Assembly: GCA_035651955.1 (NCBI GenBank) | Contig: DASRES010000008.1 | Location: 1-64,000, forward strand | Reading direction: 5' to 3' | Length of the DNA: 64,000 bases | DNA from: Acidimicrobiia bacterium | GTDB lineage: Bacteria > Actinomycetota > Acidimicrobiia > IMCC26256 > JAMXLJ01 | Shown: piece by piece, positions 35,916-54,354 of the stretch | How positions within the stretch are numbered: the first letter of the stretch is position 1 | Layout of the letters: every line of letters starts with the position of its first letter | Notes under the pieces: generated by a model | The model's input: only the letters and a program-made list of their open reading frames with translations | Told to the model about the DNA's origin: nothing | The model's database searches: none | Program-made: the position numbers and the translations under genes

Positions 35916-37067
35916 ATGCGTGCTCGCCTGCTGTGTGCCGCCGTCGCGGTCGCGCTCGTCGCGGCCGCGTGCTCGTCGGGTTCGTCGGGCTCGTCGAAGA
36001 AGTCGTCATCCGGGTCGCCGTCGTCGACGACGACGACCGCGAAGGCCTCCGGTGCCGCGACGCCGACGATCGGTCACGTCTTCGTCATCAACCTCGAGAA
36101 CAAGAGCTACGACCAGACCTGGGGGCCCGGCTCGAAGGCGCACTACCTGAACACGACGCTGCGCGCCAAGGGCGAGCTGCTGACGAACTACTACGGGATC
36201 GGTCACGCGAGCCTCGACAACTACATCGCGCAGATCAGCGGCCAGTCACCGAACCCGAGCACACAGGCCGACTGCACGACCTACACCGAGTTCGCACAGA
36301 CCGGAGTCGGCGCGGACGGTCAGGCGCTCGGCAAGGGCTGCGTGTACCCCGCGTCCGTGAAGACGATCGCGGACCAGCTCGTCGCCGCCGGGAAGACGTG
36401 GAAGGGCTACATGGAGGACATGGGCAACTCGTCCACCGAGCCCAAGACGTGCCGCCACCCGGCGATCGGCAGCACCGACCACACGATCCGCCCGACCGCG
36501 GGTGACCAGTACGCGACGCGTCACAACCCGTTCGTGTACTTCCACTCGATCATCGACTCCCCGGCGTGCAACCAGAACGACGTCCCGCTCGACCGGCTCC
36601 CCGGCGACCTCGCGTCCGTGGCGACGACGCCGAACCTCGTGTTCATCACGCCGAACGTCTGCAACGACGGGCACGACTCGCCCTGCGCCGACGGCCAGCC
36701 CGGCGGTCTCGTGTCCGCCGACCGGTTCCTGAGCCAGTGGGTCCCGAGGATCCTCGCCTCGCCCGCCTACCAGCACGACGGGCTGCTCGTCGTCACGTTC
36801 GACGAGGCGGAGACGTCGGACTCCACCGCGTGCTGCAACACGCCCCCGTCACCGAACACGAGCCAGCCCGGCGGCGACGGTCCCGGCGGCGGGCGGATCG
36901 GCGCGCTGCTCGTGTCGTCCGCGGTCGAGCCCGGGTCGACGAACGGCACGCCGTACAACCACTACGCGCTCTTGTGCAGCATCGAGAACGTCTTCGGCCT
37001 CGACCACCTCGGCTTCGCCGGCGCGCCGGGGCTCCAGTGCTTCGGCAAGGACGTCTACAACCGCTGA
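35916..37067 (+). CDS. Secreted lipoprotein phosphoesterase (acid phosphatase-like)
   Basis: A 383-residue exported phosphoesterase. The signal ends ALVAAACSSGS (Cys19, lipoprotein type) followed by a Gly/Ser/Thr linker. The catalytic domain has GHVFVINLENKSYDQTWGP, GHASLDNYIAQISGQ, KTWKGYMEDM, RHNPFVYFHSI, LVVTFDEAE and PYNHYALLCSIENVFGL. These line up with the truncated protein at 1-1322, so the two are paralogues about 35 kb apart. Several Cys residues (ACCNTPP, for example) suggest disulfides in the exported domain. Expected role: phosphomonoester or -diester hydrolysis outside the cell. Confidence 0.88.
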   Translation: MRARLLCAAVAVALVAAACSSGSSGSSKKSSSGSPSSTTTTAKASGAATPTIGHVFVINLENKSYDQTWGPGSKAHYLNTTLRAKGELLTNYYGIGHASLDNYIAQISGQSPNPSTQADCTTYTEFAQTGVGADGQALGKGCVYPASVKTIADQLVAAGKTWKGYMEDMGNSSTEPKTCRHPAIGSTDHTIRPTAGDQYATRHNPFVYFHSIIDSPACNQNDVPLDRLPGDLASVATTPNLVFITPNVCNDGHDSPCADGQPGGLVSADRFLSQWVPRILASPAYQHDGLLVVTFDEAETSDSTACCNTPPSPNTSQPGGDGPGGGRIGALLVSSAVEPGSTNGTPYNHYALLCSIENVFGLDHLGFAGAPGLQCFGKDVYNR

Positions 37068-42168: not shown

Positions 42169-42188
42169 GCGGTCCGTCTAGCACGTCA

Positions 42189-42223
42189 CGAGGTGGGGCC
42201 CCAGGGGGATGGGCCCCACCTCG
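42189..42223 (-). terminator. Strong hairpin terminator (13-bp perfect stem)
   Basis: CGAGGTGGGGCCC (42189-42201), 9-nt loop, GGGCCCCACCTCG (42211-42223). It lies downstream of the Ig-like secreted gene (stop at 42247, minus strand) and separates that locus from the CocE/NonD gene. Confidence 0.8.
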
Positions 42224-42246
42224 CGACGGCCTCCCGGCGCGATCGG

Positions 42247-43692
42247 TTACTTGGAGACGGTTGCCGTCGCCTGCGAGTAGACCGGACCGGACTGCGTTGC
42301 CGCGGTCAGGTTGTCGGTCCACGGGAAGAACGAGGTCTGGCCATCGAACGTGAAGCTCGCGGTCGACGTGGCGGGCCCGGTGGCGCTGATCGTCAACGTG
42401 ACCGACGAGCCGGACGTCGGCGCCGTGAACGTGCCGCCGTTCGTCGTGACCTTCACCGTGCGGCCGGTGCCGACGTCGGTCACGGTGTTGCCGTACGTGT
42501 CCGTGACGCTGACCGTCGCGCTGAACAGACCATTGTTGTTGACGTGGGTCGCGCTGCACGTGAAGAGGCACGGGTTCGACAGCGTCCCGTTGGTCGACGC
42601 GTTCGTCCAGGCGAGCTTCGCGGCCGTCGTCGTCAGCACCGTGAACGTGGTCGTCCCGGACTTCGTGCCGTTCGAGACCGTCAGCGTCGTGCTGCCGGCA
42701 TCGGTCAGCGTGATCGACGCGCTGGCTTGGGCGTTCGAGTCGAACGAGAGCCGGCTCGTCCCGCTGCTGCAGCTCTTGTTGGCGGGGTAGGTCGGCGCGT
42801 TGCCGCCCGGGCTGCTCGACGGACCCGAGAACGTCACGCACCCGTTCGTCGACGTCCACCCGCTGGCCGGGTTGCCGTACGCGTCGAGCGCGGCGACCGT
42901 CACGGTGAACGCCTGGCCGGCCGTCTGTGAGCCCGGGTTCGTCAGGGTGAAGTGGTCCAGGCCGGCGCCGCTCACGGCGACGCTGTCGCTCCCCGTCGCG
43001 CTCGTCGTGACGGTGTCGTTCACCGTGACGGTCATCGTCCCCGCCGTCGCGAGCGTGACGTTGGAGAACGTGTGCACACCGTTGTCGGATGCCGTGAACG
43101 TGTAGTCGGAGGGCAGCGTCGCCTGGGCGTCGCTGCTCGAGAAGTGGACGGTCCCGCGGTAGGTCGTGAGCGTCGCGTTCGACGCGTTGCGCGCGGTGAC
43201 GGTCACGTTGAAGCCGCTGCCGGCGGTCGCCGACGACGGTGCGCTGACCGAGAAGTGGTCGACGCCCGCGACGGTGACGGCCGCGCTCTTCGCACTCTCG
43301 GCGCCCGTCCAGCTCCCGCTGTGAGGTGTGACCGTGTAGCGCCACGAGCCCGACGGCACGTTCGTCTCCGTGCAGCTCGTCGTCGTGAGGGTGCCCGAGC
43401 ACGACGCGCCGACCGTGCGGGGCACGTTCGTCGTGGCGTCGTACGACTTGACGACGTAGCCGCCGACGGGCGATCCGCCGACCTTCACCGTGCTCCACGA
43501 GACGGTGACCGATGTGCCGGAGGCCGACGCGCTCGGTGTCGGACCCGACGGCATCGTGGTGGCCTTCCCCCACGCGGTCGTGCTCGCGCCGTGCGCCTGC
43601 CACGCCGCGTACGCGACCGTGTCGAGCGACGCGGCCGCGAGCACGGCGATGACCGTCGCGACGAGGAGCTGCTGCACCCGCCGGGCGTTCAC
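42247..43692 (-). CDS. Secreted Ig-like repeat protein of a SipW-like locus
   Basis: A 481-residue exported protein. The N-terminus (VQQLLVATVIAVLAAASLDTVAYAAWQAHG) is a signal/anchor segment with the AAW ending seen in SipW-type signal peptides. Mature part: an FN3-like module (about 45-142), then Ig-like/Big-type modules starting VDHFSVSAPSSATAGSGFNV (about 144), GLDHFTLTNPGSQTAGQAFTV (about 245) and KLAWTNASTNGTLSNPCLF (about 360), all very Ser/Thr/Val-rich. GTG 43692 overlaps the stop of the upstream gene (GTGA). Looks like an adhesin or structural surface protein. Confidence 0.75.
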   Translation of the reverse strand: MNARRVQQLLVATVIAVLAAASLDTVAYAAWQAHGASTTAWGKATTMPSGPTPSASASGTSVTVSWSTVKVGGSPVGGYVVKSYDATTNVPRTVGASCSGTLTTTSCTETNVPSGSWRYTVTPHSGSWTGAESAKSAAVTVAGVDHFSVSAPSSATAGSGFNVTVTARNASNATLTTYRGTVHFSSSDAQATLPSDYTFTASDNGVHTFSNVTLATAGTMTVTVNDTVTTSATGSDSVAVSGAGLDHFTLTNPGSQTAGQAFTVTVAALDAYGNPASGWTSTNGCVTFSGPSSSPGGNAPTYPANKSCSSGTSRLSFDSNAQASASITLTDAGSTTLTVSNGTKSGTTTFTVLTTTAAKLAWTNASTNGTLSNPCLFTCSATHVNNNGLFSATVSVTDTYGNTVTDVGTGRTVKVTTNGGTFTAPTSGSSVTLTISATGPATSTASFTFDGQTSFFPWTDNLTAATQSGPVYSQATATVSK

Positions 43693-44168
43693 GCCTTCGC
43701 CGCCTGAGCCGAGAGCGTCAGCGGGAACGTGGCGTCCTGGCACGCGTCGGGTGCGGTCCGCGCCATGCGCACGGTCACGCCGATCGAGTCCGAGCCGCGC
43801 GCGGGCACGACGAGCGCGCCCGAGAAGCCCGACGTCGCGAGGTTCGTCGCGAGGCAGCGCGGCGACGCGTCGTGCACGGTCACGGCGACCGTGGTCACGC
43901 GCAGGGGGATCGCGTTGGGGTTGTCGACACGCACCGCGAGCGTGCGGGTCGCGCTCGGATAGAGCCCGTCCACCTCACCGCGCAGGCTGAACGGGTGCGG
44001 TGTGGCGTCGTCCGTGTGGACCGTCGGCGCGTTCGACGCGCCGTGGGTGCCCGCCATCGCGTCCTGCCGGCGCGTGCGCGCGTGGCTGACCACGAGCACC
44101 ACGAGGACGGCGATCACGGCGACCGTGACGACCGTGGCGGTGATCCTGGTCGGTCTCGAGCGGTGCAT
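43689..44168 (-). CDS. Membrane-anchored paralogue of the 44274 secreted protein
   Basis: A 159-residue protein. N-terminal basic residues and a hydrophobic helix (ITATVVTVAVIAVLVVLVVSH) act as an anchor. The exported domain contains LYPSATRTLAVRVDNPNAIPLRV, VVPARGSDSIGVTV and APDACQDATFPLTLSAQA, matching in order LYPSGSADVAVTINNPNPYPVTV, VVPANGNVTKVF and VDACQGQTFTIPVSISG in the protein at 44274-44738. Two Cys are conserved between them (one in each of the C-x and DACQ positions), suggesting a disulfide. The gene overlaps the Ig-like gene. No known family name. Confidence 0.7.
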   Translation of the reverse strand: MHRSRPTRITATVVTVAVIAVLVVLVVSHARTRRQDAMAGTHGASNAPTVHTDDATPHPFSLRGEVDGLYPSATRTLAVRVDNPNAIPLRVTTVAVTVHDASPRCLATNLATSGFSGALVVPARGSDSIGVTVRMARTAPDACQDATFPLTLSAQAAKA

Positions 44169-44231
44169 GGGCTGCGGGGCTCCGGATGATCGAAGGTCGG
44201 GCGGGCGGGCGGACTGTGGGAGGAGTGACGG

Positions 44232-44265
44232 CGGCCCGGAGCGCGGGGGAACGCGCTCCGGGCCG
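44232..44265 (-). terminator. Strong hairpin terminator (14-bp perfect stem)
   Basis: CGGCCCGGAGCGCG (44232-44245), 6-nt loop, CGCGCTCCGGGCCG (44252-44265), beginning 9 nt after the stop of the 44274 gene on the minus strand. It may give partial readthrough into the two downstream genes of the locus. Confidence 0.8.
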
Positions 44266-44273
44266 TCGGGGTG

Positions 44274-44738
44274 CTAGCTGCTGGCGCCGCTGATGCTCAC
44301 CGGGATGGTGAACGTCTGGCCCTGGCAGGCGTCGACCGAGGCGTTGCTCATCGACGCCGCGTTCGCGAAGACCTTCGTGACGTTGCCGTTCGCCGGGACG
44401 ACGATCGACAGGCCCGTCTGGTTCGTGAACGTGACGCCGTTGCTGGCGTCGCACGTCGTGTTGCCCGACGTGATGGCGCCGTTGCCCGTGACCGACGAGA
44501 CGGTGACGGGGTACGGGTTGGGGTTGTTGATCGTGACCGCGACGTCCGCCGAACCGCTCGGGTAGAGCAGGTTCACGACCGACGCCGACGCGTCCGACGT
44601 GGTGAGTGCCTTCGCGGTCCCGGCCTTGGCCGAGCCGCTGCCGGTGCCGCCGGCGGTCCAGGCCGCCCACGCGAGCCCGATGCCGGCGAACGTGACGAGC
44701 GCGACCCCGAGGGCCGCGAGCTTCTTCCAATGGCGCAA
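44274..44738 (-). CDS. Secreted protein with SipW-like signal (TasA/pilin-like size)
   Basis: A 154-residue exported protein. A basic LRHWKKLAALGVALVTFAGIG precedes the hydrophobic LAWAAWTAGGTG, resembling SipW-dependent signals (helix then AAWT...G). The mature domain is about 115 residues, beta-rich by pattern, with Asn-Pro-Asn-Pro and DACQGQTFTIPVSISG near the end. AAGGAG lies just before TTG 44738, so that start is preferred; an upstream GTG at 44768 is an alternative. First gene of a three-gene locus with an own strong terminator, suggesting highly expressed product. May form surface fibres; no signal peptidase gene is seen in the window. Confidence 0.72.
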   Translation of the reverse strand: MRHWKKLAALGVALVTFAGIGLAWAAWTAGGTGSGSAKAGTAKALTTSDASASVVNLLYPSGSADVAVTINNPNPYPVTVSSVTGNGAITSGNTTCDASNGVTFTNQTGLSIVVPANGNVTKVFANAASMSNASVDACQGQTFTIPVSISGASS

Positions 44739-48339: not shown

Positions 48340-50889
48340 CTACAGCCCGATGTGCTGGGTCGCGAACGCGACGTCGTCGAACACGACGTCGTACGTGCGG
48401 CCCGTCTGCACCTCGCCGATCTGCAGTTGCCCGACCGCGGCTGTGCCGAGGTTCGCCGTCGTCGACGACAGCGAGTCGACGTGGACGTCGTCGAGCCACG
48501 CGTCGATCGTGCTCGACGTGCCGTTCACGCGCATGTGCAGCTCGAGTGCGTGCCAGCCCGGTGACACGGCGGTCGTGCTCGTCGTCGTGGTGGCCGCGAC
48601 GTCGTTGCGCAGACCCAGAGTCCCGGACGTGCTGACGAACAGGTATCCGAGCGAGTTGCCCGATGCGTCACGGAACCGCAGCAGGTTCACCTGGCTCGAC
48701 GAGCTCGGGATGTCGAAGTAGATGCGCGCGTACGCGTCCGTGTAGGTCGACGACAGCGTCTTCTTCGCGTACGTCGCACCGTTCGTCGTGTTGCCCTCGG
48801 CCGCCTTCGTCCCCGAGTGGACGGTCGTGCCCTCGACGGTCAGGCCGGACGACGACGTCCACGCCGAGAGGTTCCCCGACTCGAACCCGTCACTGAAGAT
48901 CGGGACCACGGAGCTCGGCGTCGTCACCGGCGCTGCGGCGGTGAACCCCGACGCGTTGCTGGCCCCGTCACGCGCCCGCACCGAGTAGGTGTAGGTCGTG
49001 GACGGTGAGGCGGTCGTGTCGGTGAACGACGTCGACGTGCCGCCGACCGACCCGACGATCGTCCCGTTGCGCGCCACGTCGTACGCGGTCACGCCCACGT
49101 TGTCGGTGGAGGCGGACCAGGAGACGTTCACGGACGTCGGCGACGCCGCGCTCGCGGTCACGGCCGACGGTGCGGACGGCGCGGTCGTGTCGACGGTCCA
49201 CGTGTACGTCGCGGGCGTCGGGTCCGTACCGCCGCTGTTCGACGCCGCGACCGTGAACGTGTGCGTCCCCTGGGCGAGGCCTGAGTAGCTGACCGGGCTC
49301 GTGCACGCGGTCGCGGCGCCTCCGTCGAGCTTGCACGTGAACGTCGCCGGCGTCGCGGTCGCGTGGAACGTGAACGACGCGCTCGTCGCGTTCGTCTGCA
49401 ACGCGGGCGCGGCGTCGATCACCGTGTTCGGCGCGGTGCTGGAGAAGTCGTAGGTCTGCACGTCGAACGTCCGGCCGAGCGAGTCCGTCGGCGTGACCGT
49501 GATCGACGTGCCGTTCACCGTCACCTTCAGGAAGTGGAACACCTGGCTGGTCGACGTCGGGGCGACGGCCGACCCGCACTTCGAGCCCTTGCTCGACGAG
49601 TACGACCAGCCGATCGCGTACGCGTCGTAGGCGTGGCACGTCCCCATCGGCTCGAGCGTGCCGCCTCCGCCGCCGGTCACGTACGTGACGGGGGCGCCGG
49701 GCGCGCTCGGGACGTTGCGCTCGTAGACGTGCGCGTGACCGTTGAACCAGAGGTTCACGCCGTATTGGGTGAGCAGCCCCTCGAGGTTGCTCGGTCCCTG
49801 CAGGAACGTGTCCGAGGGCTGGGTGTTGTTGTCGGAGTACACCGGGTAGTGCGAGAAGGCGACCTTCAGCCCGGTCGGGTGCGCCTGCAGGTCGCTCAGC
49901 AGCCACTGGTACTCCGGTGTCCCGGGGGCGAAGTGCGCTGCCGCGTCGTTCGCGTACGGCGACGCGGTCCCGGGGTTCGTGTCACCCCACGCGGAGTCGA
50001 GCATGTAGAAGCGGACGTTCCCCGCGTCGAACGCGTACCACGCGCTCGTGTAGTTCACCGACGTCGTGCCGTTGATGCAGCAGTACGTGTCGCCGGTGTA
50101 GCGACCGTTCGACGACGCGACCGCGACGTCCTGCGGCCAGTTGACGAGGTCGGTGTGCGCGCCCGCGTTCGTCGTGAGGCCGTGGTTGCCGGCCGTCGGG
50201 AAGATCGGGATCGACGTGCCGGGGACGGTCCAGAACGTCGGGCCGTAGATCGCGCTCGTGTCGGCACCGGTCTGGTGGAGGTCCCCGTAGTTCTGCTGGT
50301 TGCCGTTCGGGTACCCGTTGTCGCCGACCGTGGCGACGAACCGCGCGCCGCTCGTGCGCACCTGCGACAGCAGGTTCGCCTGATCGGGGTTGTTGCCGTT
50401 CGCGTCGACCTGGCCCCAGTCGCCCATCACGTCGAACGAGAACGACTCGGTCGAGCCGGGTTGCACGTTGGCCTCGAACTGCAGCGACGGCGCCGTGCCG
50501 AGCAGGTCGGTCGAGCCGAGGTACACGCGGTAGCAGAAGGGTCCGACGTTCGGCAGCGTCAGCGGCGCCTTCCACTGGTACGAGGTCGCGGCCGCGACGA
50601 CGACGGTCTGCTTCGTCGCGGTCTGGGTGTTCGACAGCGTGCAGGTCCCGCTGCCGGTGTCGAACGGGCCCCACTTCACCGAGCCGACCGTGCCGGACTG
50701 GTCGGTGCCCCAGTTGACGAGCACGTGCAGCCCGACGGCGTCGGTGAGGTACGGCGCGCGCGTCAGGTGACTGCTGAACGTGGCCGGGTCCGGCGCCGGC
50801 GGGGGTGACCACGGGGAGAGGCACCCCGACAGGACGAGCGCGAGCGCGCCGAGCAGCGCGCTCGAGACGAGGATCCGCCGACTGGACAT
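48340..50889 (-). CDS. Lipoprotein purple-acid-phosphatase-like metallophosphoesterase with FN3
   Basis: An 849-residue exported protein. Lipobox LSGC (Cys23). An N-terminal Ig-like domain (TRAPYLTDAVGLHVLVNWG) precedes the metallophosphoesterase core: DVMGDWGQVD, TVGDNGYPNG, TAGNHGLTTN, FSHYPVYSDN and FNGHAHVYERN give all metal ligands of the purple acid phosphatase fold. From about residue 515 there are beta-sandwich modules (an Ig-like VDTTAPSAPSAVTASA FN3 at about 600-690) and a C-terminal laminin-like module (GFESGNLSAWTSSSGL to the end). The first 500 residues are paralogous to the protein at 52198-54354. Function: extracellular phosphate-ester hydrolysis; the extra domains suggest polymer or surface binding. 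Confidence 0.92.
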   Translation of the reverse strand: MSSRRILVSSALLGALALVLSGCLSPWSPPPAPDPATFSSHLTRAPYLTDAVGLHVLVNWGTDQSGTVGSVKWGPFDTGSGTCTLSNTQTATKQTVVVAAATSYQWKAPLTLPNVGPFCYRVYLGSTDLLGTAPSLQFEANVQPGSTESFSFDVMGDWGQVDANGNNPDQANLLSQVRTSGARFVATVGDNGYPNGNQQNYGDLHQTGADTSAIYGPTFWTVPGTSIPIFPTAGNHGLTTNAGAHTDLVNWPQDVAVASSNGRYTGDTYCCINGTTSVNYTSAWYAFDAGNVRFYMLDSAWGDTNPGTASPYANDAAAHFAPGTPEYQWLLSDLQAHPTGLKVAFSHYPVYSDNNTQPSDTFLQGPSNLEGLLTQYGVNLWFNGHAHVYERNVPSAPGAPVTYVTGGGGGTLEPMGTCHAYDAYAIGWSYSSSKGSKCGSAVAPTSTSQVFHFLKVTVNGTSITVTPTDSLGRTFDVQTYDFSSTAPNTVIDAAPALQTNATSASFTFHATATPATFTCKLDGGAATACTSPVSYSGLAQGTHTFTVAASNSGGTDPTPATYTWTVDTTAPSAPSAVTASAASPTSVNVSWSASTDNVGVTAYDVARNGTIVGSVGGTSTSFTDTTASPSTTYTYSVRARDGASNASGFTAAAPVTTPSSVVPIFSDGFESGNLSAWTSSSGLTVEGTTVHSGTKAAEGNTTNGATYAKKTLSSTYTDAYARIYFDIPSSSSQVNLLRFRDASGNSLGYLFVSTSGTLGLRNDVAATTTTSTTAVSPGWHALELHMRVNGTSSTIDAWLDDVHVDSLSSTTANLGTAAVGQLQIGEVQTGRTYDVVFDDVAFATQHIGL

Positions 50890-52080: not shown

Positions 52081-52197
52081 CGCGCGCCCTGTTCCGCGGT
52101 GATCAGGGGACCCTAACGTGGCGCCGGCAGGTGGTCCCGGGCCGTGGCGCGCGACATCGGGGTCGGCGAGGGCACGACCGGGGACGGGGGCACGAGG

Positions 52198-54354
52198 GTG
52201 AGGCAGGGATCGAGCCCGGCGCGCAGCCGGCGGGCGCTGGGTGTGGTCGTCGCGACGACGACGTTCGTCGCGCTCCTGGGCCTGGCCGCCGCCCCGGCGT
52301 CCGCTGCCGGGCCGCGCCTGCTGCGCACGCCGTACCTGACGGACGCGTCTGCGTCGTCGATGCTCGTCAACTTCGCGACGGACACGCAGTCGCCCGCGCC
52401 GGTCGTGACGTACGGGACCGCGCGCGGGTCGTGCGGCACGTCCACGGTGACGGCCACCGGCAAGAGCATCACGGTCGGCACGGCGACCGCGTACCAGTGG
52501 GGGGCGCGCATCAACGGGCTGACCCCGGACACCGCGTACTGCTACCGCGTGCTGCAAGGGACGACCGACCTTCTCGCCGGTGCGGCACCGACGTTCCGCA
52601 CCGCGGCGGGTGCAGGCTCGGCGTTCTCGTTCGCGGTGATCGGCGACTGGGGTGCCGGCACGCCCGACGAGGCGAAGGTGTTCACGCAGATCGCGGCGAG
52701 CAATCCGAACTTCGTCGTGACGGTCGGCGACAACGCGTACAACGACGGCTCGCAGACCGACTACGGCGACGTCGACGGCGGCAACGTCTTCACGCCCGAC
52801 TACTGGGGCAAGATCGGCGCGACGACCCCGGGCTTCCCCGCGTTCGGGAACCACGGCTTCACGAACGGCAACGTGCACCTCGACGACTGGCCCGTCGACT
52901 CCGTGGTCGCGTCGTCGGGTGGCCGGTTCGGGCCGATGACGTACTGCTGCCTCACGCAGATGGCCGGGTCGAGGACGTACTCGGACGGTTGGTACGCGTT
53001 CGACTGGGGCAGCGCGCGCTTCTACGTGCTGCAGGCGGCGTGGGCCGACGGCACCGGTGGCTACCAGAGCGACTTCGAGGGCCACTGGTCGAACGGGATG
53101 CCCGGCTGCGGACCGTGCGGCGCGGAGATGCAGTGGCTGCAGCAGGACCTCGCGGCGCACGCCGACACGCCGATCAAGTTCGCGTTCTTCCACTACCCGC
53201 TCTACAGCGACAGCAGCCACGAGACGAGCGACCAGTTCCTCGAGGGGCAGAACGGTCTCGAGGGCGTGCTCGCGCGCGCGGGCGTGAACATCGTGTTCAA
53301 CGGGCACGCGCACTTCTACGAGCGCAACAAGCCGATGATCCCCGGTTCGCCGATGGTCAGCTACGTCACGGGCGGCGGTGGCGCCACGCCCGAGCCGCTC
53401 GACATGTGCAGCTCGTACGACGCGTTCGGCATCGGCAGCGGTGGCCGCACGTGCCCCTCCGGCAACACCACCTCGGCGTCCGTGTTCCACTTCCTCAAGG
53501 TCGACGTCGACAGCACGGGGATCACGGTCACGCCGATCGACGAGAACGGCACGCGCTTCGACGTGCAGCACTACGCCGTCAACGGCTCGCCGCCCCCGAC
53601 GACGACCTCGACCACGAGCAGCACGTCGACCAGCACGACGACCACGACCGCGCCTCCGGCCGGCGGCGCCTTGAGCGGCTGGACGCTCGACGGCTGGGGT
53701 GGCCTGCACGCCTTCGGGACGTCGGCCTCGGCCGTCACGATCACGAACGCGCCGTACTGGCCGGGGTGGGACATCGCGCGCGGCGTCGCGTTCTCGGGCC
53801 GCGGGTGGGGTGTCGTCGCCGACGGCTGGGGCGGCCTGCACACGTTCCTCGCCGGCGCCGGCAGCGCGCCCGTCATCACGTCGAACGCGTACTGGCGCGC
53901 GTGGGACATCGTCCGCGGCGTCGCGTTGATGCCCGACGGCTCCGGCGGCTTCGTGCTCGACGGCTGGGGTGGGCTGCACCCGTTCTCGATCGGTTCGGGG
54001 AAGGCGCCGACCGCGACCGGCGTGCCGTACTGGCCCGGGTGGGACATCGCGCGGGGCATCACGATCGACCCCTCCGGGAGGTTCGGCTACGTGATCGACG
54101 GGTGGGGTGGTCTCCACCCGTTCCGGATCGGGTCGTCGACGGTCGACCCGCCGCAGGTGACGGGCGCGCCGTACTGGCCGGGGTGGGACATCGCGCGCGG
54201 CGTCGCGCTCGCGCCCGACGGCACGAGCGGTGCGACCGTCGACGGCTGGGGCGGGCTCCACGCGTTCGCGGTCGGCTCGGGTGCACCGCCCGCGGCGCCG
54301 AGCGCGCCGTACTGGCCGGGGTGGGACATCGCGCGCGGCGTCGCGCTCCGCTGA
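52198..54354 (+). CDS. Secreted metallophosphoesterase with five DGWGGLH repeats
   Basis: A 718-residue exported protein. The start GTG 52198 gives a Sec-type signal peptide (RSRRALGVVVATTTFVALLG, cleavage after APASAA); GTG 52144 would add 18 residues. An Ig-like domain (RLLRTPYLTDASASSMLVNF) precedes the purple-acid-phosphatase core: AVIGDWGAGT, TVGDNAYNDG, FGNHGFTN, FFHYPLYSDS, FNGHAHFYERN. A Thr/Ser-rich linker follows (about 466-490), then five tandem repeats of 44-48 residues (about 498-718) each with DGWGGLHxF and PYWPGWDIARGV. These probably form a beta-rich, propeller-like binding domain. The catalytic half is a paralogue of the 48340-50889 protein. Confidence 0.9.
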   Translation: MRQGSSPARSRRALGVVVATTTFVALLGLAAAPASAAGPRLLRTPYLTDASASSMLVNFATDTQSPAPVVTYGTARGSCGTSTVTATGKSITVGTATAYQWGARINGLTPDTAYCYRVLQGTTDLLAGAAPTFRTAAGAGSAFSFAVIGDWGAGTPDEAKVFTQIAASNPNFVVTVGDNAYNDGSQTDYGDVDGGNVFTPDYWGKIGATTPGFPAFGNHGFTNGNVHLDDWPVDSVVASSGGRFGPMTYCCLTQMAGSRTYSDGWYAFDWGSARFYVLQAAWADGTGGYQSDFEGHWSNGMPGCGPCGAEMQWLQQDLAAHADTPIKFAFFHYPLYSDSSHETSDQFLEGQNGLEGVLARAGVNIVFNGHAHFYERNKPMIPGSPMVSYVTGGGGATPEPLDMCSSYDAFGIGSGGRTCPSGNTTSASVFHFLKVDVDSTGITVTPIDENGTRFDVQHYAVNGSPPPTTTSTTSSTSTSTTTTTAPPAGGALSGWTLDGWGGLHAFGTSASAVTITNAPYWPGWDIARGVAFSGRGWGVVADGWGGLHTFLAGAGSAPVITSNAYWRAWDIVRGVALMPDGSGGFVLDGWGGLHPFSIGSGKAPTATGVPYWPGWDIARGITIDPSGRFGYVIDGWGGLHPFRIGSSTVDPPQVTGAPYWPGWDIARGVALAPDGTSGATVDGWGGLHAFAVGSGAPPAAPSAPYWPGWDIARGVALR
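53689..54351 (+). repeat. Five tandem ~135-bp coding repeats (DGWGGLH)
   Basis: Repeat starts at codons for DGWGGLH: LDGWGGLHAF, ADGWGGLHTF, LDGWGGLHPF, IDGWGGLHPF and VDGWGGLHAF, each followed by PYWPGWDIARGV (the second reads AYWRAWDIVRGV). Repeat length is 44-48 residues. The fifth ends at the stop codon. Confidence 0.9.

What the first reader, a model, noticed from the sequence alone, without database searches (positions are those of the whole stretch)
42247..44738. Three-gene secreted locus with SipW-like N-termini: possible undescribed surface fibre/adhesin system
A small secreted protein (44274) with a SipW-type signal, its membrane-anchored paralogue (43689) sharing LYPS/NPN/DACQ blocks and two Cys, and a 481-residue Ig-like protein with a similar AAW N-terminus. 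The layout recalls a subunit, an anchor/assembly factor and a tip or adhesin protein. A strong terminator after the first gene would make the small protein the most abundant, as expected for a fibre subunit. None matches a named family to my knowledge.
Basis: partly seen in the sequence, partly recalled or inferred. Interest (0 to 1): 0.62.

Follow-up and report, generated by a model that had tools for sequence, protein, structure and literature searches.

The report
Putative actinobacterial three-gene surface-fibre operon
Three neighbouring genes make secreted proteins that recur together across the actinobacteria, share no curated family name, and look like the repeating unit, the cell anchor and the adhesive end of a surface fibre, although no fibre has yet been seen.

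Summary
A (44274-44738, small, secreted), B (43689-44168, membrane-anchored) and C (42247-43692, FN3/Ig-like) form a minus-strand operon. A and B are paralogues (hhalign 98%, E=5e-14). Related genes were found in 67 named loci across Actinomycetota; among 68 loci, all three genes stay together in 27, A with C in 43, A with B in 45. No Pfam or NCBIfam family covers A. A and C carry an aromatic residue at the SipW-type site (89% and 95% of members; B 25%, other secreted proteins 21%). A strong hairpin follows the first A gene in 51 of 80 loci (10% in controls, p=9e-20), and B and C overlap by exactly 4 nt in 18 of 20: dosage logic for a major subunit and two minor partners. A's mature N-terminus is conserved with strict two-residue periodicity yet disordered in the model, as expected of a donor strand. 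C has a similar segment but no A domain; B the reverse. Best model: a polar chain B-A-A...-C joined by strand complementation, working like TasA/TapA but not a TasA relative. A dedicated SipW is not supported: its presence does not track A, and this genome's SipW belongs to a CalY cluster elsewhere. Polymerisation is inferred, not shown.

The parts
44274..44738 (-). Gene A (154 aa): small secreted protein, SipW-type site LAWA|AWT, one Ig-like domain of the shared A/B type; proposed fibre subunit
44619..44663 (-). First 15 residues of mature A (AWTAGGTGSGSAKAG): proposed donor strand; even positions W/G/G/G/A/A conserved, odd positions polar
44229..44268 (-). GC hairpin (14-pair core stem) directly after the A stop codon; proposed partial terminator or 3' end stabiliser
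   Evidence: conservation of placement
43689..44168 (-). Gene B (159 aa): N-terminal membrane anchor plus one A-type domain, no SipW-type site; proposed base/anchor
43689..43692 (-). GTGA: 4-nt overlap of B stop and C start (translational coupling)
42247..43692 (-). Gene C (481 aa): SipW-type site VAYA|AWQ, FN3 domain, then Ig-like repeats; proposed tip adhesin
42180..42231 (-). Long inverted repeat after the C stop, terminator-like, separating the trio from the S15 peptidase gene

Best explanation
The locus encodes a secreted surface-fibre system of Actinomycetota that works like TasA/TapA but is built from a different, unnamed Ig-like domain. Proposed working: A, B and C leave by Sec. A is made in excess because a hairpin follows its gene, while B and C are translationally coupled and scarce. 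After signal-peptide removal the first residues of mature A form an extended strand that completes the incomplete beta-sandwich of the next A. B has the acceptor domain but no donor segment and is fixed in membrane or wall, so it holds the base. C has a donor-like segment but no A-type acceptor domain, so it fills the free groove at the far end and displays its FN3/Ig repeats. Shown here: genes, paralogy, conserved trio, hairpin, coupling, site chemistry, periodic N-terminus. Inferred: cleavage, export, polymerisation, polarity, adhesion.
For: Conserved module: of 68 loci, 43 have A and C, 45 have A and B, 27 all three; exact A-B-C order also in the same-genus genome G001 and in G030, G120, G129, G356. 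A/B homology. First-A hairpin 64% vs 10% in operon-internal controls, p=9e-20, 30 of 40 lineage groups; B 6%, later A 8%. B-C 4-nt overlap 18/20, A-B 2/50. Mature N-terminus of A: in columns +1 to +12 every odd column is more polar (0.55-0.92) than every even one (0.08-0.43); 1 in 924 by chance ordering. AlphaFold2 of A: Ig-like domain, mean pLDDT 81, first 15 mature residues below 50 although conserved. B relatives with LPTTG (L018) or LPFTG (L059/L090) plus TM tails; sortases present in those genomes. C: FN3 domain (titin FN3 E=4.5e-12); relatives match Big_13 and a Ca-stabilised adhesin repeat. In TasA the first mature residues (28-38) are the donor strand, and TapA's N-terminus resembles that strand (PMC9674648; PMC10151520).
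Against: No multimer could be modelled and no fibre, proteomic or mutant data exist. Foldseek finds no PDB match at E<=0.001 for A and TasA is not among the 50 listed. B is lacking by profile in 23 of 68 loci and C in 25, so not every copy has the full set (some diverged C are missed). The donor pattern is weaker in C than in A. The A family is patchy: 11 of 100 relatives, 20 of 396 phylum genomes.
Confidence: 0.5

Rival explanations
1. A and C are not released: the aromatic (and, in A, Trp at P2) site blocks signal peptidase I, so all three proteins stay as membrane-anchored Ig-like surface proteins that form a non-polymeric adhesin complex.
For: W at P2 and aromatic P2' both hamper LepB on TasA (PMC10269814); several A-positive genomes, among them the nearly complete G030 and G453, have no SipW-type match.
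Against: The Ala-x-Ala site before the aromatic is itself almost invariant, which an uncleaved anchor would not need; the periodic conserved N-terminus and the excess-A operon signals are not explained.
Confidence: 0.2
2. A is a soluble, secreted matrix or wall protein, B a receptor for it and C an adhesin; the proteins bind one another but do not polymerise.
For: Secreted Ig-like domains often work as monomers; the AlphaFold2 monomer of A is a confident domain on its own.
Against: Does not predict the strictly alternating, conserved but disordered N-terminus, nor its weaker counterpart in C.
Confidence: 0.2
3. The module is an accessory of type IV pili (minor surface components that ride on or leave by the pilus system).
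For: Type IV pilus genes adjoin the module in the same-genus genome G001 (L021) and in five Amycolatopsis loci.
Against: Pilus genes recur in only these two lineages; prepilin-like neighbours in 5 of 68 loci; none beside the window trio; A has a Sec-type A-x-A site, no prepilin motif.
Confidence: 0.07
4. A true TasA/CalY fibre with a dedicated SipW peptidase.
For: Same site chemistry; a SipW-type peptidase is in the genome.
Against: A does not match PF12389 or any curated family; SipW presence does not track A (over cut-off in 4 of about 14 well-matched A-positive genomes vs 100 of 396); this genome's SipW follows a CalY 3' end on contig C9.
Confidence: 0.03

Closest known systems
TasA-TapA-SipW system of Bacillus subtilis
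   Same: Small secreted beta-sandwich protein with the same unusual signal-peptidase site; extended N-terminal strand; a partner with a similar N-terminal strand; operon of subunit and accessory proteins
   Different: Unrelated by profile (no PF12389 match), no linked SipW, conserved Cys pair in A and B, paralogous anchor B, FN3/Ig adhesin C; Actinomycetota instead of Bacillota
CalY-TasA-CapP system of Bacillus cereus (PMC13082335)
   Same: Tripartite, sortase-independent extracellular filament system
   Different: Different protein families; CapP is a chaperone-like wall protein, not an FN3/Ig adhesin
Chaperone-usher pili
   Same: Division of labour between donor-only, acceptor-only and two-sided subunits (proposed here)
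   Different: No chaperone or usher; not a Gram-negative outer membrane system; polarity proposed is reversed; no homology shown
Sortase-assembled pili of actinobacteria
   Same: LPxTG-type end on two B relatives; sortases in the genomes
   Different: A and C have no LPxTG tail; B in the window is held by an N-terminal membrane segment
CalY-SipW cluster of the same genome (G000 C45/C9)
   Same: SipW-type sites on secreted beta-rich proteins
   Different: Other family (PF12389), own peptidase fused to an NHL propeller, other place in the genome

Membership tests
TasA/CalY (PF12389) | Match to the family profile | tested here: not met
   No Pfam match for A, B or C above cut-off; none of 44 A relatives matches; the one PF12389 match in the genome is on C45
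TasA/CalY (PF12389) | SipW-type cleavage site with aromatic P2' | tested here: met
   LAWA|AWT and VAYA|AWQ; 108/122 A and 39/41 C relatives
TasA/CalY (PF12389) | Linked or dedicated SipW peptidase | tested here: not met
   None beside the trio; no association across 100 relatives and 396 phylum genomes
TasA/CalY (PF12389) | TasA fold | tested here: inconclusive
   Ig-like model, no PDB match at E<=0.001, TasA not in the 50 rows listed
Donor-strand fibres | Extended N-terminal strand outside the own domain | tested here: inconclusive
   Conserved, periodic, disordered in the monomer model; consistent with the feature but indirect
Donor-strand fibres | Strand inserted into the next subunit | not testable with these tools
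   No multimer modelling; needs cryo-EM
Sortase-assembled pili | LPxTG sorting signal on the major subunit | tested here: not met
   0 of 122 A, 0 of 41 C; one of 40 B in the count plus L018
Type IV pilins | Prepilin leader G-F-T-L-x-E | tested here: not met
   A begins with a Sec signal and A-x-A site

The most novel reading that the evidence does not exclude
An undescribed class of donor-strand fibre, widespread in Actinomycetota and unrelated in sequence to TasA, with a built-in division of labour: acceptor-only wall or membrane anchor (B), two-sided subunit (A, often a second A), donor-only adhesin (C), needing neither a dedicated SipW nor sortase for polymerisation.
Probability: 0.4. Interest if true: 0.82.

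Novelty: new variant of a known kind. Interest (0 to 1): 0.62.

Why it matters
Many soil and aquatic actinobacteria (Amycolatopsis, Arthrobacter, Actinoplanes relatives, Acidimicrobiia) carry this module, yet its core protein has no curated family and my literature searches found no description. If it builds fibres, it would be a second, apparently independent TasA-like strand-linked fibre in Gram-positive-type bacteria, and a ready handle on biofilm and attachment in a phylum where these are poorly known. It also raises a testable question: which signal peptidase cuts SipW-type sites in bacteria that lack SipW.

Tried and rejected
Dedicated SipW: searched TIGR02228 in own genome, 100 relatives and 396 phylum genomes; no association, so rejected as a requirement. 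A first control for the aromatic site (7/121) was scored more strictly than the test set; it was repeated and only those numbers are used. Classical terminators and sigma-70 promoters: none found in the region. Profiles against PDB sequences: best is a weak match (E=0.007) to a fimbrial assembly chaperone, not used as evidence. The C model beyond residue 200 is unreliable. Type IV pilus association considered: two lineages only.

Full report
Check of the observation. The three minus-strand genes are present as described: A 44274-44738 (154 aa), B 43689-44168 (159 aa), C 42247-43692 (481 aa). The window lies in a 4.1 Mb, 92-contig genome; the relative G053 in the same order has a 6,969-base contig of the same length as a record titled 'Acidimicrobiia bacterium', so the organism is probably of that class. 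None of the three reaches a Pfam or NCBIfam cut-off.

Paralogy. A finds B in its own genome at E=2.9e-7. Profiles of the two families align over 91 columns with 98.2% probability and E=5.2e-14. The shared domain runs from the LYPG block through NPN to the DACQG block, with two Cys.

Conservation. Single-sequence and profile searches found A in 11 of 100 relatives and 20 of 396 phylum genomes. A scan of named genomes gave 67 loci in Amycolatopsis, Arthrobacter, Paenarthrobacter, Pseudarthrobacter, Actinoplanes and other Micromonosporaceae, Actinomycetospora, Phycicoccus, Pedococcus, Geodermatophilus, Lentzea, Conexibacter, and many uncultured actinobacteria. With profiles for A, B and C, 43 of 68 loci (window included) hold A and C, 45 A and B, 27 all three; common orders are A-B-C, A-C and A-B-A-C. 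These are lower bounds: the Amycolatopsis loci counted as lacking C hold a short C-like gene (L089 5423-5860). The trio in exact order is in the same-genus genome G001 (L021) and in G030 (L018), G120 (L060), G129 (L059) and G356 (L067).

Signal sites. A reads GLAWA|AWTAGG and C reads VAYA|AWQAHG. TasA reads TWA|AF (own knowledge), and both the aromatic P2' and the Trp at P2 were reported to hinder E. coli LepB (PMC10269814). Among relatives A-x-[AGS]-X-[WFY] is found in 108/122 A, 39/41 C and 10/40 B; a strict form occurs in 26/121 other secreted or membrane proteins of the same loci. So A and C, but not B, carry the feature.

SipW. The genome has one SipW-type peptidase over the TIGR02228 cut-off, on contig C9. 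The bases just before it encode the end of a CalY-like protein, and the start of a CalY/TasA protein (PF12389) runs off the end of contig C45; a second CalY-like gene follows. That cluster is therefore separate from the trio; that C45 and C9 join is my inference. Across the phylum 100 of 396 genomes are over the cut-off; among about 14 well-matched A-positive genomes G000, G107, G272 and G356 are, G073 is just below, and others such as G453 are not. Among relatives G030, complete by estimate, has none. A dedicated SipW is not a property of this module.

Operon signals. Directly after the A stop lies a GC hairpin with a 14-pair core (RNA z = -3.6), with no T run. In 80 loci, the first A gene is followed within 90 nt by a stem of at least 8 GC pairs in 51 (64%), against 19 of 199 operon-internal neighbours (10%; p=9e-20), 6% after B and 8% after later A genes; the stems differ widely in sequence. 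Counting related genera once, 30 of 40 groups have it; the p-value itself treats related loci as independent. B and C overlap by exactly 4 nt in 18 of 20 loci, A and B in 2 of 50. After C the window has a long terminator-like repeat (z = -4.7). Read together: much A, little but matched B and C. That is inference from sequence; no expression was measured.

Structure. AlphaFold2 on 44 A sequences gives an Ig-like seven-strand domain (mean pLDDT 81) with the first 15 mature residues below 50. Yet that segment is strongly conserved: W at 0, G at +4, +6, +8, A at +10, +12, with polar residues between; every odd column from +1 to +11 is more polar than every even one from +2 to +12. A conserved, amphipathic strand that finds no place in its own domain is what a donor strand looks like. 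In TasA fibres the first mature residues are exactly that (PMC9674648), and TapA gives its N-terminus to TasA (PMC10151520). Foldseek gave no PDB match at E<=0.001 for A. C has a confident FN3 domain after a disordered N-terminus, then repeats; relatives match Big_13 and a Ca-stabilised adhesin repeat.

Mechanism. A has donor segment and domain; B has domain, an anchor and no donor segment; C has a donor-like segment (weaker periodicity), no A domain and Ig repeats. The simplest arrangement is a polar chain with B at the cell, A along the shaft and C at the end. B's role as anchor is supported by its N-terminal membrane segment in the window and by LPTTG and LPFTG tails on its relatives in G030 and G129, whose genomes have sortases. 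My probabilities: conserved secreted operon 0.97, A the major product 0.7, polymer 0.5, donor-strand linkage 0.4-0.45.

Comparison with the known. It works like TasA/TapA (proposed) but is not a member: PF12389 is not matched and no SipW is linked. It is not a sortase pilus (A and C lack sorting signals) nor a type IV pilin. Eight literature searches found no description in the held library; subscription papers are mostly missing there, so this is weak evidence of absence.

Noticed in passing
G000 contig C9, L150:231-2291: The SipW-type peptidase is fused to an NHL beta-propeller, with a SipW-like site (AFGMF) between the two parts, so the enzyme may cut its own propeller loose.
   Followed up: partly
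G000 contigs C45:1-303 and C9:2-271, 2441-2992: A CalY/TasA-type gene appears split between two contig ends beside SipW, with a second CalY-like gene after it: a classical CalY-SipW cluster in the same genome.
   Followed up: partly
L149:1040-4416 (G167): A CalY-SipW cluster that also holds an Ig-like protein with a SipW-type AFW site, recalling C beside true CalY-like proteins.
   Followed up: no
L021:1-5783 and L089, L093, L098, L116, L125: Type IV pilus genes (prepilins, PilT-like ATPase) adjoin the A module in the same-genus genome and in five Amycolatopsis species.
   Followed up: partly
window 35916-37067, 48340-50889, 52144-54354: Three secreted-looking phosphatase-type proteins (PF04185; metallophosphatase with fn3; purple acid phosphatase type) within about 18 kb around the trio.
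   Followed up: no
Arthrobacter-group and Amycolatopsis loci (e.g. L094, L100, L089): Many loci have two A-type genes around B (A-B-A-C); the first is usually the one followed by the hairpin, suggesting a major and a minor subunit.
   Followed up: partly
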